A program made the position numbers and the translations under genes. 44,864 nt of DNA, taken from NCBI GenBank assembly GCA_005879795.1, contig VBKJ01000160.1, forward strand, positions 1-44,864, read 5' to 3'. Below are positions 39,154 through 44,296 of this stretch, one piece after another (the stretch's first letter is position 1; the number at the start of each line of letters is the position of its first letter). This DNA is from Deltaproteobacteria bacterium. GTDB taxonomy: Bacteria > Desulfobacterota > Binatia > DP-6. The notes below the pieces were generated by a model. That model did no database searches and was not told the origin of the DNA. It saw nothing but the letters and a program-made list of their open reading frames with translations.

Positions 39154-41691
39154 TCATCGCCCCGCCATCTCCACGAGCCGCGCCAGCACCGCCAGCGCCT
39201 CGAGCGGCGTCAGCCGCTCCGGGTCTATGCCGGCCAGCTCCCGCCGGATGCGCTCCTCGTCCGCCGAGAACAGCGACAATTGCGCCGCCGCCGGCTCCGG
39301 CCCGCGCCCGACCGGCCCCTGCCCCGTCTCGAGCCCTTCCAGCAGCGCTCGCGCCCGCGCCACCACCGGCTCCGGCACGCCCGCGAGGCGCGCCACCTCG
39401 ACCCCGTAGCTCCGCGGCGCCGGGCCGGGCACGATCTGGCGCAGGAACACGATCTCGCCCTTCCACTCCGCGACCGCCACCGAGAGGTTCCGCACCCGCG
39501 GCTTCTCCGCCCCGAGCGCGGTCAGCTCGTGGTAGTGCGTCGCGAACAGCGTCCGCGGCCGCTCGAGCGCGTCGTGCAGGTGCTCGGCCACGGCCCACGC
39601 GATCGAGATGCCGTCGAAGGTGCTCGTGCCACGCCCGATCTCGTCGAGGACGACGAGGCTCCGCGGCGTGAGCCCGGCCAGGATGTTTGCCGTCTCGCGC
39701 ATCTCGACCATGAAGGTCGACTCGCCGCCCACCAGGTTGTCGCTCGCGCCGACGCGCGTGAAGATGCGGTCGACGAGCCCGATCTCCGCCTCTGCCGCGG
39801 GGACGAAGCTGCCCGTCTGCGCGAGCAGCGTGATGAGCGCGACCTGCCGGAGGTAGGTCGACTTGCCGCCCATGTTGGGGCCGGTGATGACGAGGAGCTG
39901 CTCCGCCTCGGGATCGAGGCGCGTGTCGTTGGGCACGAAGCCGCCGCCCGCGACCGCCTCGACCACCGGATGGCGGCCGGCGCGGATGGTGAGGGTGGGC
40001 GCGCGGGTGATGGCGGGCCGCACGTAGCCCCGCCGGTGCGCCACCTCGGCCAGGGCGGCGAGCGCGTCGAGCGCCGCGAGCGCGTCCGCCGTGCGCGCGA
40101 GCGTCGGGTGGTGCGCCGCCACGGTGTCGAGTAACGCCTCGAAGAGGTGCACCTCGAGCGCCCGCAGGCGCTCCTCGGCGCCGAGCACGCGCGCCTCGTG
40201 CTGGCGGAGGGTCGGGGTCACGAAGCGCTCGGCGCCGACCAGCGTCTGCCGCCGCTCGTAGTCGGGGGGGACGAGTGGCAGGTTCGGGCGCGTTACCTCG
40301 ACGTAGTAGCCGAAGACCTTGTTGTGGCGGACTTTGAGCGACGCGATGCCCGTGCGCTGGCGCTCCGCCGCCTCGAAGCGCGCGAGCCAGCCCCTCGCGT
40401 CCCGCGCCGTCTCGCGCAGCTCGTCGACTTCCCGGTCGCGCCCGGGTCGGATGAAGCCCGGGAGGCGCGCATGCGGCGGCGGCGCATCGACGAGCGTCGC
40501 GGCGATCTCCGCCGCCACCCCGGGGAGCGGATCGAGCGCGCCGGCGAGGGTACCCAGCAGCTCGGCCCGGGCGCCGGCCAGGGCCGCCTGCGCCTCGCCC
40601 ACCCGCCCGAGCGCGACCGCCAGGTGCGCCACGTCCCGCGGACCGGCGCTGCGCGCACCGACCCGCCCCGCGAGCCGCTCGAGGTCGCCGATGCGGCCGA
40701 GCCCCGCCCCGAGCGCCCCGCGCAGCTCGAGGCGCTCCACCAGCTCCTCTACCGCGTCGAGCCGCCGGCCGATCGCGGCGGGATCGAGCAGCGGATAGAT
40801 GAGCCACTCGCGCAGCCGCCGCGCGCCCATCGGCGTGGCCGTCTGGTCCAGCACCCAGAGGAGCGAGCCGCGCCGCTCGCCGCCGAGCGTCTGCAGCAGC
40901 TCGAGGTTCCGGCGCGTCGCCGCGTCGAGCTGGAGAAAGCCGGCCGGGGCGTACGCCTCCGGCGGCCGGAGGTGGGCCGGCCGCCGCCGGCAGGCGGCGT
41001 CGACGTAGGCCAGCACGCCGCCCGCGGCACGTGCGGGCAGCCGCGGCAGGTCGCCCTCGACCGGGGTGGGCTCGGGCAGCGGCGCCGTCGCCCACGGCCG
41101 GCCCGCCCGGCAGGCGGCGTCGATCGCCGGCGGCAGGTCGGGCGCGAGCAGCAGCTCGCGCGGCGCCAGGCGCTCGAGCTCGTCGCGCGCGAGCTCCCAG
41201 CCATGCACCTCGGTGGCGCGGAAGGCGCCGCTCGCGAAGTCGATCACGGCGATGCCGAAGCGCTCCTCCTCGGCGGCGAGCGCGGCGAGGAGGCTCGGCG
41301 CGTCCGGCTCGAGGCTCTCCTCCTCGAGGATCGTGCCGGGCGTGATGACGCGCACCACCTCGCGCTCCATGAGCCCGCGCCCGCGCGCCGGCGTCTGCTC
41401 GCAGACCGCGACCGTGTGGCCCTTGGCGAGGAGCCGCGTGACGTAGGGCTGCGCCGCGTGCGCCGGGAAGCCGCACAGGGGAACCTCGTCCGGGTCGCCG
41501 CGGTTCCGCGCCGTGAGCGTCAGATCGAGGTCCCGCGCGGCCACCTCGGCGTCCGCGAAGAACATCTCGTAGAAGTCGCCGAGGCGGAAGAGGAGGATCG
41601 CCTGGCGGTGCTGCGCCTTGATGCGGAGATACTGCGCGAGGAGCGCCCCCTGGCGTCCTCCCGACCCCCGCTCCTCGACCGCCTCCGCCAT
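39154..41691 (-). CDS. mutS: DNA mismatch repair protein MutS
   Basis: From ATG 41691 the product is about 845 residues. The mismatch-recognition Phe-x-Glu motif is present (FRLGDFYEMFFADAEV). The connector, lever and clamp regions are visible (TRRNLELLQTL, RHNKVFGYYVEVTRPN). The ATPase has Walker A VITGPNMGGKSTYLRQ, the ABC signature-like ESTFMVEMRETANIL, and Walker B LVVLDEIGRGTSTFDG. LFATHYHELTAL and a C-terminal dimerisation helix complete the protein. It recognises mismatches and starts repair with MutL, which is not in the window. The in-frame upstream extension to 41751 is not supported by family length. Confidence 0.97.
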   Translation of the reverse strand: MAEAVEERGSGGRQGALLAQYLRIKAQHRQAILLFRLGDFYEMFFADAEVAARDLDLTLTARNRGDPDEVPLCGFPAHAAQPYVTRLLAKGHTVAVCEQTPARGRGLMEREVVRVITPGTILEEESLEPDAPSLLAALAAEEERFGIAVIDFASGAFRATEVHGWELARDELERLAPRELLLAPDLPPAIDAACRAGRPWATAPLPEPTPVEGDLPRLPARAAGGVLAYVDAACRRRPAHLRPPEAYAPAGFLQLDAATRRNLELLQTLGGERRGSLLWVLDQTATPMGARRLREWLIYPLLDPAAIGRRLDAVEELVERLELRGALGAGLGRIGDLERLAGRVGARSAGPRDVAHLAVALGRVGEAQAALAGARAELLGTLAGALDPLPGVAAEIAATLVDAPPPHARLPGFIRPGRDREVDELRETARDARGWLARFEAAERQRTGIASLKVRHNKVFGYYVEVTRPNLPLVPPDYERRQTLVGAERFVTPTLRQHEARVLGAEERLRALEVHLFEALLDTVAAHHPTLARTADALAALDALAALAEVAHRRGYVRPAITRAPTLTIRAGRHPVVEAVAGGGFVPNDTRLDPEAEQLLVITGPNMGGKSTYLRQVALITLLAQTGSFVPAAEAEIGLVDRIFTRVGASDNLVGGESTFMVEMRETANILAGLTPRSLVVLDEIGRGTSTFDGISIAWAVAEHLHDALERPRTLFATHYHELTALGAEKPRVRNLSVAVAEWKGEIVFLRQIVPGPAPRSYGVEVARLAGVPEPVVARARALLEGLETGQGPVGRGPEPAAAQLSLFSADEERIRRELAGIDPERLTPLEALAVLARLVEMAGR

Positions 41692-41793: not shown

Positions 41794-43686
41794 CTACTTG
41801 CAGACCCTCCCCTGGCGGCTGCGCTTGCAGCTCTTCGAGCAGCAGTCGGCGTTCCCGGTGCAGGTGGAACCGGACACGAGGCACGCGGCGAGCGTCGTCG
41901 TCGTGGTGCTGCTCGTCGATGCCGTGGTCGTGGTGGTGCTCGGCGCGGTCGTGGTCGTCGTGGTGGTGATGGGTGGTGCCGTCGTCGTCGTGGTGGTCGG
42001 CGGGGCCGTGGTGGTGGTGGTGGTCGAGGTCGTCGTCGTGCTGGTCGGAGCCACCGCGGCGAGCAGGTTCCGCGCATCGAAGCTCCCGAGGCCCGTCACC
42101 ATGTCGTAGCCGACGCCCGCGCTGTAGTCGCCGTTCGAGCCCGACGTGATGTCATGGAGGGCGGCAGTCCCGCAGCGGCCGTAGAGGAGCGCGCCCGGGT
42201 TCCCGAGCGCCCCGCCGTGCTGCTGGACGAGCTCGGCAGCGAGGCCCGCCCATTGCGGCGCCGCGTCCGACGTGCCGCCGACGATGTACCAGGAGCCGCC
42301 CTCGAGGACGTAGTTGCCCGGCGAGGTGTTGGCCTCGAGCGCGACGTCGGGGACGAGCCGCATCGTGCCGGCCGGGACGCCGCAGCCCTGCTGGAAGGCC
42401 GGGCGCGCGAACACCTGGCTCACGCCCCCGCCCGAGCCGCTCCACCCGGTCTCCGAGCCGTAGCCGCCGCAACCCGGGCTCGAGGGCGTCAGGCCGCTGC
42501 CGCAGGCGGGCGTCGTGCCCCCGACGCCCATCACGTGCGGCGAGTTCGCCGGGTTGTCGACGCCGAGGATGTTGCTGCAGTCGCGGCTCCCGCTGTCCCC
42601 CGACGCTGCGAACCACGACTGCCCGATCGCATTGCCGTTCGCGAAGATGTTGTCGTCGGTCTGCTGCGTGGCCGACGACACGCCCGCCTCGCACGCGCCC
42701 CAGCTGGTGGACACCACGTGACCGGGATTGTCGGTCACGATGCGGTTGTACATCGTCGTGAAGGCGGCGAGGGAGGTCGAGGCCGCCATGTAGTTGAGGA
42801 TGCGGGCGGCCGGCGCCGTGCCGTGGGCGTACTCCACGTCGAGCGCGATCTCGAGCGAGTTGTTACTGCTGAACGCGCAGCCCGGGGACCCCGACGGGCC
42901 GGTGCAGACCTGGCCGCTGCCTGCCGGGAGCTGGGGGAGACCCCACTGGCTGTTGAAGGCCGAGGTGTCGGTGTCTTTCCACGCGTAGGCGCCGGCGATG
43001 ACGATGGTCTGGCCGGCGCCCGCCAGGGCCGCCGTGTTGTCGTAGAAGGTGAAGAGGTCGTTCGGGCTCAGGTGGCAGCAGTTCGACCCGAGCGCCGCCC
43101 GCGGGGCGACGGCGGGCTCGACCGACCGCACGTGGGGATGCCGCTCGCTCAGGTCGTCGAGCCCGATCACTCCCACGACGTAGCTCGCCATCGCGTCGGG
43201 GAACGAGGGCTCGTCGAGTGCCGCATAGTGCAGCTTGCCGGCCCGCTGCACGCGGTGGATCTCCACCCCGAAGGCCCGCTCGAGCGCCGCGACGCTGCCC
43301 ACCGCGCCGACCAGCAGCCGGTTCGGGAAGCGCGTCGTGACCCGCAGCCCGACATCGCGGAGATGGCCGACCACCGCCTCCTCCTCGGCCGGGGTGGGCG
43401 CGTAGAGGGCGTCGAACTCCGCCTGGCTCAGGAACGCGTGGTAGCGAGGCGAGGCAGGGTCCTGGACGTCGGCGAGGAAGGCCTCGAGCGCCGCGCGGTC
43501 GCGCACATCGAGGCTCACCACCACGTGATGGCGCTCGGCGGTGGGCGCGCGACCGAGATCGACCACGTCCCTCAGGTGGGGCGAGAGCGAGGATGACCTG
43601 CCAGGCGCCCCCGCTGCGGGGGCGGCCGCCATGCCGATCGCCAGCGCGATCAGCGAGAGCGAGCGAGCAATCGTCGGTAGCTGCAT
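41794..43686 (-). CDS. Secreted S53 (sedolisin/kumamolisin-type) peptidase with Thr-rich linker and C-terminal knottin
   Basis: The 630-residue preproprotein starts at ATG 43686 with GGAGG 4 bp ahead. A signal peptide is followed by the S53 prodomain (HHVVVSLDVRDRAALEAFL, FPNRLLVGAVGSV). Catalytic residues are Glu279 and Asp283 (NSLEIALDVEY), Asp364 (AASGDSGS) and Ser473 (GGTSDAAPQWAG). A calcium site follows (HDITSGSNGDYSAGVGYDMV). After residue about 540 comes a Thr-rich linker of TTTT/APP repeats, then a six-Cys end, CLVSGSTCTGNADCC with SKSCKRSRQGRVCK, spaced C-x6-C-x5-CC-x3-C-x8-C like an inhibitor cystine knot. The enzyme class works at low pH and autoprocesses; here it should be secreted and anchored or targeted by the tail. 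Confidence 0.94.
   Translation of the reverse strand: MQLPTIARSLSLIALAIGMAAAPAAGAPGRSSSLSPHLRDVVDLGRAPTAERHHVVVSLDVRDRAALEAFLADVQDPASPRYHAFLSQAEFDALYAPTPAEEEAVVGHLRDVGLRVTTRFPNRLLVGAVGSVAALERAFGVEIHRVQRAGKLHYAALDEPSFPDAMASYVVGVIGLDDLSERHPHVRSVEPAVAPRAALGSNCCHLSPNDLFTFYDNTAALAGAGQTIVIAGAYAWKDTDTSAFNSQWGLPQLPAGSGQVCTGPSGSPGCAFSSNNSLEIALDVEYAHGTAPAARILNYMAASTSLAAFTTMYNRIVTDNPGHVVSTSWGACEAGVSSATQQTDDNIFANGNAIGQSWFAASGDSGSRDCSNILGVDNPANSPHVMGVGGTTPACGSGLTPSSPGCGGYGSETGWSGSGGGVSQVFARPAFQQGCGVPAGTMRLVPDVALEANTSPGNYVLEGGSWYIVGGTSDAAPQWAGLAAELVQQHGGALGNPGALLYGRCGTAALHDITSGSNGDYSAGVGYDMVTGLGSFDARNLLAAVAPTSTTTTSTTTTTTAPPTTTTTTAPPITTTTTTTAPSTTTTTASTSSTTTTTLAACLVSGSTCTGNADCCSKSCKRSRQGRVCK
41876..42060 (-). 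repeat. Threonine-codon repeat array (linker)
   Basis: A degenerate ACC/ACG/ACA repeat with CCG-CCG interruptions encodes the Thr/Pro linker of the S53 peptidase. It is in-frame, so length changes by slippage would alter the linker without breaking the protein. Confidence 0.85.
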
Positions 43687-44032
43687 CGATCCTCCAGACT
43701 CCCGAGACGGTGGCTGATCCACCCCGCGGCCCGCCGAGGCAAGTTCCGTCTCGGCAGGGAGCATCCGCAGAGAGAGCAAGGATCGTGCTCGGCTCGGCCA
43801 TGGCGCCGGGCAGGAGTCCCGGGCGAGGCGAGCGCACGGCGTGTGCCGTCGGCGCCCGCCTGTGTCGCCCGCGACCCAGCCGGGGCGGCACCGACGCCCC
43901 CGGACGGTCACGGAGCGCGGAAGTCCGGCCGGCGCCACTGGTGGAGGCTCGAGGCCCGAGTCGGTGCCTGCTACCGGTGCTGCGGCGCGAACCGAGGCCG
44001 CACCTCGGGGGCCGGGGACGCAGGACGGGCGG
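43687..44032. other. 346-bp intergenic region upstream of the S53 peptidase
   Basis: No gene is supported. ORFs on both strands are Arg/Pro-rich shadows without ribosome sites. It should hold the peptidase promoter, but no clear -35/-10 pair or sigma-54 element is seen. Confidence 0.5.
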
Positions 44033-44296
44033 CTACCCGCCCAGCGCCGCCTTCACCTTGCGCAGGGTCTCGAGGTCCTTGTTGAGGCCGTCGACGTGCT
44101 GCTGCATCTCGACGATGCTCGAGCCGAGCTGGGCGGCCGAGCCGAGCGCGCCGCCCTGCTCGCCCGCCTTCTTCATGACGTCGCCGAGCTGCGCCTCGAC
44201 GCTCCGCGGCCCGAGGGCTCCGCACAGGTAGCCGGCGCCGAAAATACCCGCTACCGCGAGCATGCGAAGCCCGCGGCCGATCCGTTTCTGGAGCAT
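44033..44296 (-). CDS. Small exported or membrane-anchored coiled-coil protein (87 aa)
   Basis: The ATG at 44296 has a GGGGGACGGG purine run just upstream. The hydrophobic N-terminus (MLAVAGIFGAGYLCGALG, ending SVEAQ) acts as signal or anchor. The mature part is a predicted helix (QLGDVMKKAGEQGG, SSIVEMQQHVDGLNKDLETL). No family is recognised. It lies 20 bp after the VWA gene on the same strand, so the two are probably co-transcribed; functional coupling is inferred only from that. Confidence 0.75.
   Translation of the reverse strand: MLQKRIGRGLRMLAVAGIFGAGYLCGALGPRSVEAQLGDVMKKAGEQGGALGSAAQLGSSIVEMQQHVDGLNKDLETLRKVKAALGG

What the first reader, a model, noticed from the sequence alone, without database searches (positions are those of the whole stretch)
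41794..42060. Knottin-like six-Cys tail on a secreted acid protease, joined by a Thr-rich linker
The spacing C-x6-C-x5-CC-x3-C-x8-C matches inhibitor-cystine-knot peptides known mainly from animal venoms and plants. On a bacterial exported protease it may serve as targeting, stability or cell-surface module. The repeat-coded linker could vary in length.
Basis: partly seen in the sequence, partly recalled or inferred. Interest (0 to 1): 0.6.

Follow-up and report, generated by a model that had tools for sequence, protein, structure and literature searches.

The report
Bacterial protease with knottin-like tail
A secreted bacterial acid protease ends in a tiny six-cysteine domain that is predicted to fold like the cystine-knot peptides of spider venoms and plants, and the same unnamed domain sits on some thirty other exported proteins across this bacterial class, so it looks like a general bacterial add-on module, not a one-off.

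Summary
Confirmed and extended. The gene (minus strand, 41794-43686, 630 aa) encodes a signal peptide, a pro-kumamolisin domain, a sedolisin (S53) catalytic domain with its catalytic residues, a 57-residue Thr-rich linker and a terminal C-x6-C-x5-CC-x3-C-x8-C module. AlphaFold2 folds the tail with high confidence (pLDDT 91). 19 of its 22 PDB matches are cystine-knot peptides. About 31 proteins in about 20 genomes of the same class carry the module: alone on short lipoproteins, in tandem, just after signal peptides, or (20 of about 31) ending within 3 residues of the stop. In about 380 sampled genomes from the rest of the phylum none matched at E<=0.001. No Pfam or NCBIfam model reaches its cut-off on it. 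A 7-module array shows purifying selection (dN 0.15, dS 1.5). The sedolisin C-terminal slot is exchangeable: a 73% identical own-genome paralog has only a short Thr tail; a 66% identical relative has a dockerin-like tail. Best reading: a class-specific knottin module on exported proteins, probably for surface or substrate attachment; the fold is well supported, the function inferred. New variant of a known kind.

The parts
41794..43686 (-). CDS of the exported sedolisin-type protease with knottin-like tail, 630 aa
   Evidence: ORF; GGAGG 4 nt before the ATG; Pfam Pro-kuma_activ; kumamolisin match E 2.4e-35
43691..43695 (-). GGAGG ribosome-binding site
   Evidence: read directly
43606..43686 (-). 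Sec-type signal peptide, MQLPTIARSLSLIALAIGMAAAPAAGA, probable cleavage after AGA
   Evidence: sequence inspection; no signal-peptide predictor was available
43153..43566 (-). pro-kumamolisin activation domain
   Evidence: PF09286 E 8.7e-26
42079..43068 (-). sedolisin (S53) catalytic domain with Glu/Asp pair (SLEIALD), oxyanion Asp (SGDSGS), Ser (GGTSD)
   Evidence: phmmer against kumamolisin 1t1e/1t1g, catalytic residues aligned
41884..42054 (-). 57-residue Thr-rich linker coded by an imperfect 27/57-bp tandem repeat
   Evidence: translation; Tandem Repeats Finder score 166
41797..41883 (-). six-Cys knottin-like module C-x6-C-x5-CC-x3-C-x8-C plus terminal Lys (tail net charge +5)
   Evidence: pattern unique, 0/100 shuffles; AF2 pLDDT 91.1; Foldseek; profile match
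39154..41691 (-). mutS, downstream on the same strand; context only, not part of the system
   Evidence: Pfam MutS I-V

Best explanation
The tail is a true knottin-type (inhibitor cystine knot) mini-domain. It belongs to a previously unnamed module family of this bacterial class, carried by exported proteins. Most likely mechanism: the protease is exported through Sec, the pro-domain is removed, and the disulfides form outside the cytoplasm. The catalytic domain then hangs on a long, flexible, probably glycosylated Thr linker from a protease- and acid-resistant cap. The cap's variable, here strongly basic, hairpin loop attaches the enzyme to a surface or polymer: the cell's own envelope, a neighbour's, or an anionic substrate. 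Shown: the sequence pattern, its sharing by many proteins, purifying selection on a related array, and the swappable tail slot. Predicted: the fold. Inferred: disulfide pairing, glycosylation, and the attachment function. Likelihoods: knottin fold about 0.9; general exported module about 0.9; attachment as main role about 0.45.
For: Fold: AF2 mean pLDDT 91.1 with a C-terminal hairpin. Of 22 Foldseek PDB matches, 19 are cystine-knot peptides and 2 colipases; examples: SOTI-III TM 0.78, rmsd 1.4-1.5; 5fzv rmsd 0.5 over 29 columns. Four of the five best viral matches are baculovirus conotoxin-like proteins. A profile of the modules finds animal ICK toxins at E 1.7e-5. Family: profile hits in 17 of 148 class genomes at E<=0.001 (25 at 0.01), including genomes not used to build it, such as G051, G011 and G012; none in the sampled rest of the phylum. 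Modularity: terminal placement, tandem arrays, Thr- or Pro-rich spacers. Tail exchange on the same sedolisin. Selection: dN 0.147, dS 1.53 over a 7-module array with all module Cys kept. Scaffold Gly 38/46 and Ser 37/46 kept while loops vary and charge runs from -4 to +4; the window tail and the L007 tail are among the most basic. DsbA-like proteins are encoded.
Against: No binding partner or ligand is known. No coordinates could be inspected, so the C1-C4, C2-C5, C3-C6 pairing is inferred. Foldseek E-values are all above 0.2, as expected for 32 residues. The modules have few aromatics and no Trp, unlike typical carbohydrate-binding modules of fungal enzymes. Close sedolisin relatives do without the tail. 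Module alignments were seeded by the Cys pattern, so Cys invariance within them is by construction.
Confidence: 0.55

Rival explanations
1. Stability cap: the knot only protects the protein end (and the linker) from exoproteases, acid and heat outside the cell, with no ligand.
For: 20 of about 31 proteins end within 3 residues of the last Cys, and 5 more carry the module just behind the signal peptide or TAT-like segment (and L167). Cystine knots are known for thermal and proteolytic stability (PMC3795654). Surface loops are not conserved.
Against: Tandem arrays, internal modules and stand-alone lipoproteins go beyond what an end cap needs. Close relatives of the protease do without it.
Confidence: 0.25
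2. Protease inhibitor: the tail inhibits the host protease in cis, or foreign trypsin-like proteases, as plant knottin inhibitors do.
For: The best global match by TM-score is SOTI-III, a spinach knottin trypsin inhibitor. The tail has Lys/Arg residues in its loops.
Against: Nearly all other carriers are not recognisable proteases. The enzyme already has a Pro-kuma inhibitory pro-domain. Loops are not conserved as a reactive site would be.
Confidence: 0.08
3. Released bioactive peptide: the tail is cut off and acts as an antimicrobial or signalling peptide.
For: Single-module size and basic charge of the window tail (+5); resemblance to animal peptides.
Against: No conserved cleavage site before the module. 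Most modules are neutral or acidic. Short lipoproteins keep the module tethered.
Confidence: 0.08
4. Chance or mere Cys-rich filler without a defined fold.
For: Six Cys dominate the score; some raw pattern matches in the class are chance (control counts).
Against: 0 of 100 shuffles; dN/dS about 0.1 in a related array and conserved Gly/Ser; AF2 confidence.
Confidence: 0.04

Closest known systems
Inhibitor cystine knot (knottin) peptides: spider, scorpion, cone-snail and nemertean toxins; plant SOTI/Mirabilis trypsin inhibitors
   Same: Cys order and spacing within the published ICK consensus (PMC4942781); predicted fold; profile similarity E 1.7e-5
   Different: Bacterial; a domain of larger exported proteins with linkers and tandem copies; no Pfam toxin model reaches its cut-off; common descent is not shown and convergence is likely
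Sedolisins / kumamolisin (peptidase family S53)
   Same: Pro-domain and catalytic domain with the catalytic residues
   Different: The Thr linker and knottin tail are absent from the kumamolisin chain and from nearly all homologs found here
Fungal cellulases with a CBM1 carbohydrate-binding module (from general knowledge)
   Same: Secreted hydrolase, Thr/Ser/Pro-rich linker and a tiny disulfide-rich terminal module
   Different: Different Cys pattern and no conserved aromatic binding face in these modules
Aphid RlpA proteins with fused knottin domains (PMC9116674)
   Same: A knottin fused to a larger domain of bacterial origin
   Different: Eukaryotic genes; there the knottin is the eukaryotic part; here everything is bacterial

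Membership tests
Inhibitor cystine knot (knottin) scaffold | Six Cys spaced C-x3-7-C-x3-8-C-x0-7-C-x1-4-C-x4-13-C (PMC4942781) | tested here: met
   6, 5, 0, 3, 8
Inhibitor cystine knot (knottin) scaffold | Compact fold with beta-hairpin matching solved knottins | tested here: met
   AF2 pLDDT 91.1; Foldseek matches almost all ICK peptides, TM up to 0.78; prediction only
Inhibitor cystine knot (knottin) scaffold | Disulfides C1-C4, C2-C5, C3-C6 with the third threading the ring | not testable with these tools
   no coordinates returned; implied by superposition on knottins
Venom ICK toxin families (Pfam Omega-toxin, Toxin_27, Toxin_29) | score above the curated family cut-off | tested here: not met
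   18.8, 18.5 and 17.6 bits against 22, 25 and 25
Sedolisin, peptidase family S53 | Glu-Asp-Ser catalytic residues plus oxyanion Asp, and a pro-kumamolisin domain | tested here: met
C-terminal sorting signals (PEP-CTERM type: motif, TM helix, basic end; exosortase) | transmembrane helix at the C-terminus and an exosortase in the genome | tested here: not met
   protein ends one residue after the last Cys; no exosortase match
Fungal CBM1 | conserved aromatic face on the small disulfide module | tested here: not met
   30 of 46 modules have no aromatic residue, none has Trp

The most novel reading that the evidence does not exclude
A bacterial class has its own knottin family used as a general, exchangeable display module on exported proteins: variable loops on a fixed knot, single or in arrays, tethered by lipid anchors or Thr/Pro stalks. 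It would be a bacterial counterpart of the venom ICK scaffold, arisen independently of eukaryotic knottins.
Probability: 0.5. Interest if true: 0.75.

Novelty: new variant of a known kind. Interest (0 to 1): 0.6.

Why it matters
Knottins are described as a scaffold of multiple eukaryotic kingdoms (PMC9116674), and the literature searches made here found no bacterial family. A class-wide bacterial family on enzymes, lipoproteins and repeat proteins would widen the known range of the fold, give a place to test whether it arose more than once, and offer naturally linker-mounted knottins as stable binding scaffolds. It also gives a testable role to tails that automatic annotation leaves blank.

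Tried and rejected
(1) First own-genome search used the wrong strand; its second hit (L002) is a Val-rich antisense artefact. (2) Single-sequence search of relatives with the tail gave mostly weak hits; only L007, L016 and L020 had the six-Cys spacing, and L009 held other Cys-rich repeats. (3) Bare Cys-pattern scan of the class is noisy: outside the proteins listed, many matches lie in Leu/Gln-rich frames, and control counts are high in some genomes; it was used only as a source of candidates. Weak candidates L031, L043 and L072 were left out. (4) Join of the truncated G002 sedolisin (C250 end) and the truncated Thr-linker tail (C63 end): both break off at the linker and would fit, but the contig ends do not overlap, so not claimed. 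(5) Tail in plasmids: nothing better than E 8. Viral contigs could not be searched with so short a query. (6) VKOR absent, DsbA-like present. (7) Literature: no bacterial knottin family found; the Streptomyces clavuligerus peptide paper mentions knottins only in its reference list.

Full report
WHAT IS THERE. The finding's coordinates hold the 3' end of a minus-strand gene. The coding sequence runs from ATG 43684-43686, preceded by GGAGG, to a stop at 41794-41796. The 630-residue product begins with a Sec-type signal peptide (by inspection). It continues with a pro-kumamolisin domain (PF09286, E 8.7e-26) and a sedolisin catalytic domain (kumamolisin 1t1e, E 2.4e-35; the Glu/Asp pair, the oxyanion Asp and the Ser all align). 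Then come 57 mostly Thr residues and the six-Cys end, CLVSGSTCTGNADCCSKSCKRSRQGRVCK. The Cys pattern is the only match in the window, and none of 100 shuffles produced one. The linker DNA is an imperfect 27/57-bp tandem repeat. Downstream lies mutS, upstream a vWA-like fragment; nothing suggests a dedicated operon.

IS IT A KNOTTIN. The spacing 6-5-0-3-8 lies inside the published ICK consensus (PMC4942781). The tail alone finds an atracotoxin (1axh) at E 0.0021 in the PDB by sequence. A profile of 23 related bacterial modules finds animal ICK peptides at E 1.7e-5, and one of 46 modules at 5e-5. AlphaFold2 with 46 modules gives pLDDT 91.1 and a C-terminal hairpin. Foldseek returns 22 PDB matches: 19 cystine-knot peptides, two colipase chains and one unrelated protein. 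The best superpositions are spinach trypsin inhibitor SOTI-III (TM 0.78, rmsd 1.4-1.5 A) and a spitting-spider peptide (rmsd 0.5 A over 29 columns). Against viral models, four of the five best are baculovirus conotoxin-like proteins. A three-module array of another protein (L067, 5 sequences, pLDDT 82) repeats much the same secondary structure in each module and again matches mostly knottins. No Foldseek E-value is below 0.2, as is normal for a chain of this length. Disulfide pairing could not be read because no coordinates are returned. These similarities show a shared scaffold; they do not show common descent with animal toxins.

IS IT SHARED. A Cys-pattern scan of the class, retrieval and a profile search show the module on about 31 proteins of about 20 genomes. 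At E<=0.001 it is found in 17 of 148 class genomes (25 at 0.01). In a sample of 395 genomes of the phylum only two matched at E<=0.001, both of this class. Carriers include five tandem copies (L059), three (L067, L084, L107, L110), and arrays of seven looser copies (L090, L093). Others are N-terminal modules behind the signal peptide followed by Thr linkers and an Lcl_C domain (L064; L065 alike) or an unnamed domain (L060), and a PqqD-type protein with a TAT-like segment (L070). Short lipoproteins of about 75 residues carry a single module on a Pro/Thr stalk (L074, L075, L096; also L088, L167). In 20 of about 31 proteins the chain stops within three residues of the last Cys (and L167). Pfam and NCBIfam have no family that reaches its cut-off on the module.

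IS IT UNDER SELECTION. Between two genomes the seven-module array has dN 0.147 and dS 1.53 with every module Cys kept; other pairs also have dN well below dS. Beyond Cys, a Gly in loop 1 (38/46) and a Ser after the CC pair (37/46) are kept, while loop residues and net charge (-4 to +4) vary. The window tail (+5 over 32 residues) and its closest relative L007 (+4), also on a Thr linker, are among the most basic. Cys invariance in these alignments is by construction, because the Cys pattern seeded them.

WHAT THE TAIL SLOT TELLS. The own-genome paralog L141 (73% identical sedolisin) ends in a short Thr tail with a single Cys. The 66% identical relative L142 carries a Thr linker and two D-x-D-G-[DN]-G repeats (Dockerin_1 14.9 bits, below cut-off). 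More distant homologs end directly, or carry dockerin-like or Pro/Thr-linked beta domains. The 56% identical enzyme on contig L027, titled Halobacteriales MAG, has no tail. So the tail is not needed for catalysis. It occupies a slot used in relatives by modules that typically attach proteins to something.

HOW IT MOST LIKELY WORKS. Sec export, activation by removal of the pro-domain, oxidation by DsbA-like proteins (present; VKOR absent), and a catalytic domain swinging on a long Thr linker from a small knotted cap. I think attachment through the variable loop surface is the most likely function (about 0.45), pure stabilisation of the chain end next (0.25); inhibition or release as a peptide is unlikely (0.08 each). 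A conserved aromatic binding face as in fungal CBM1 is absent, so a polysaccharide-stacking mechanism is not favoured; the basic hairpin of this tail would suit an anionic surface. Classical C-terminal sorting does not fit: the protein has no terminal helix and no exosortase was found.

NOVELTY AND LIMITS. The fold is known; its use as a recurrent module of exported proteins in a bacterial class was not found in nine literature searches of open-licence full text, which miss most subscription journals. PMC9116674 describes knottins as found in multiple eukaryotic kingdoms. Distribution outside this phylum was not tested except in plasmids. The organism's name is withheld and was not determined.

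Noticed in passing
L074, L075, L088, L096, L167 (genomes G100, G075, G087, G032, G096): A family of short lipoproteins with lipobox followed by CGG-x-DL-[LV]-[IV], a Pro/Thr stalk and one six-Cys module; relatives L168 and L169 carry a shorter four-Cys end and L170, L171, L173 no Cys end, so the stalk's cap is itself exchangeable.
   Followed up: partly
L142 (G002:C581), L123, L133, L156: Sedolisins whose C-terminal slot carries dockerin-like or D-x-N-G-D-G-type repeats instead of a knottin.
   Followed up: partly
L070 5108-5641 (G140): A PqqD-domain protein with a TAT-like segment and a terminal six-Cys module (just under the Pfam UPF0506 cut-off), which might be a modified-peptide precursor or chaperone fusion.
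   Followed up: no
L090 (G030) and L093 (G062): Orthologous proteins with arrays of seven six-Cys repeats, many directly abutting (the last Cys of one next to the first of the next), several with altered spacing.
   Followed up: partly
L145 (G002:C250 end) and L062 (G002:C63 end): A sedolisin cut off at the contig end and a Thr-linker plus six-Cys tail cut off at another contig end; the assembly may break in the Thr repeat, which would hide such tails in other draft genomes.
   Followed up: partly
L069 207-476 minus (G000:C32): A second six-Cys module in the window's own genome in an 89-residue open frame without an evident start; possibly a gene fragment.
   Followed up: partly
window 44033-44230, minus: Small putative exported protein (MLQKRIGRGLRMLAVAGIFGAGYLCGALG...) upstream of the protease, function unknown.
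   Followed up: no
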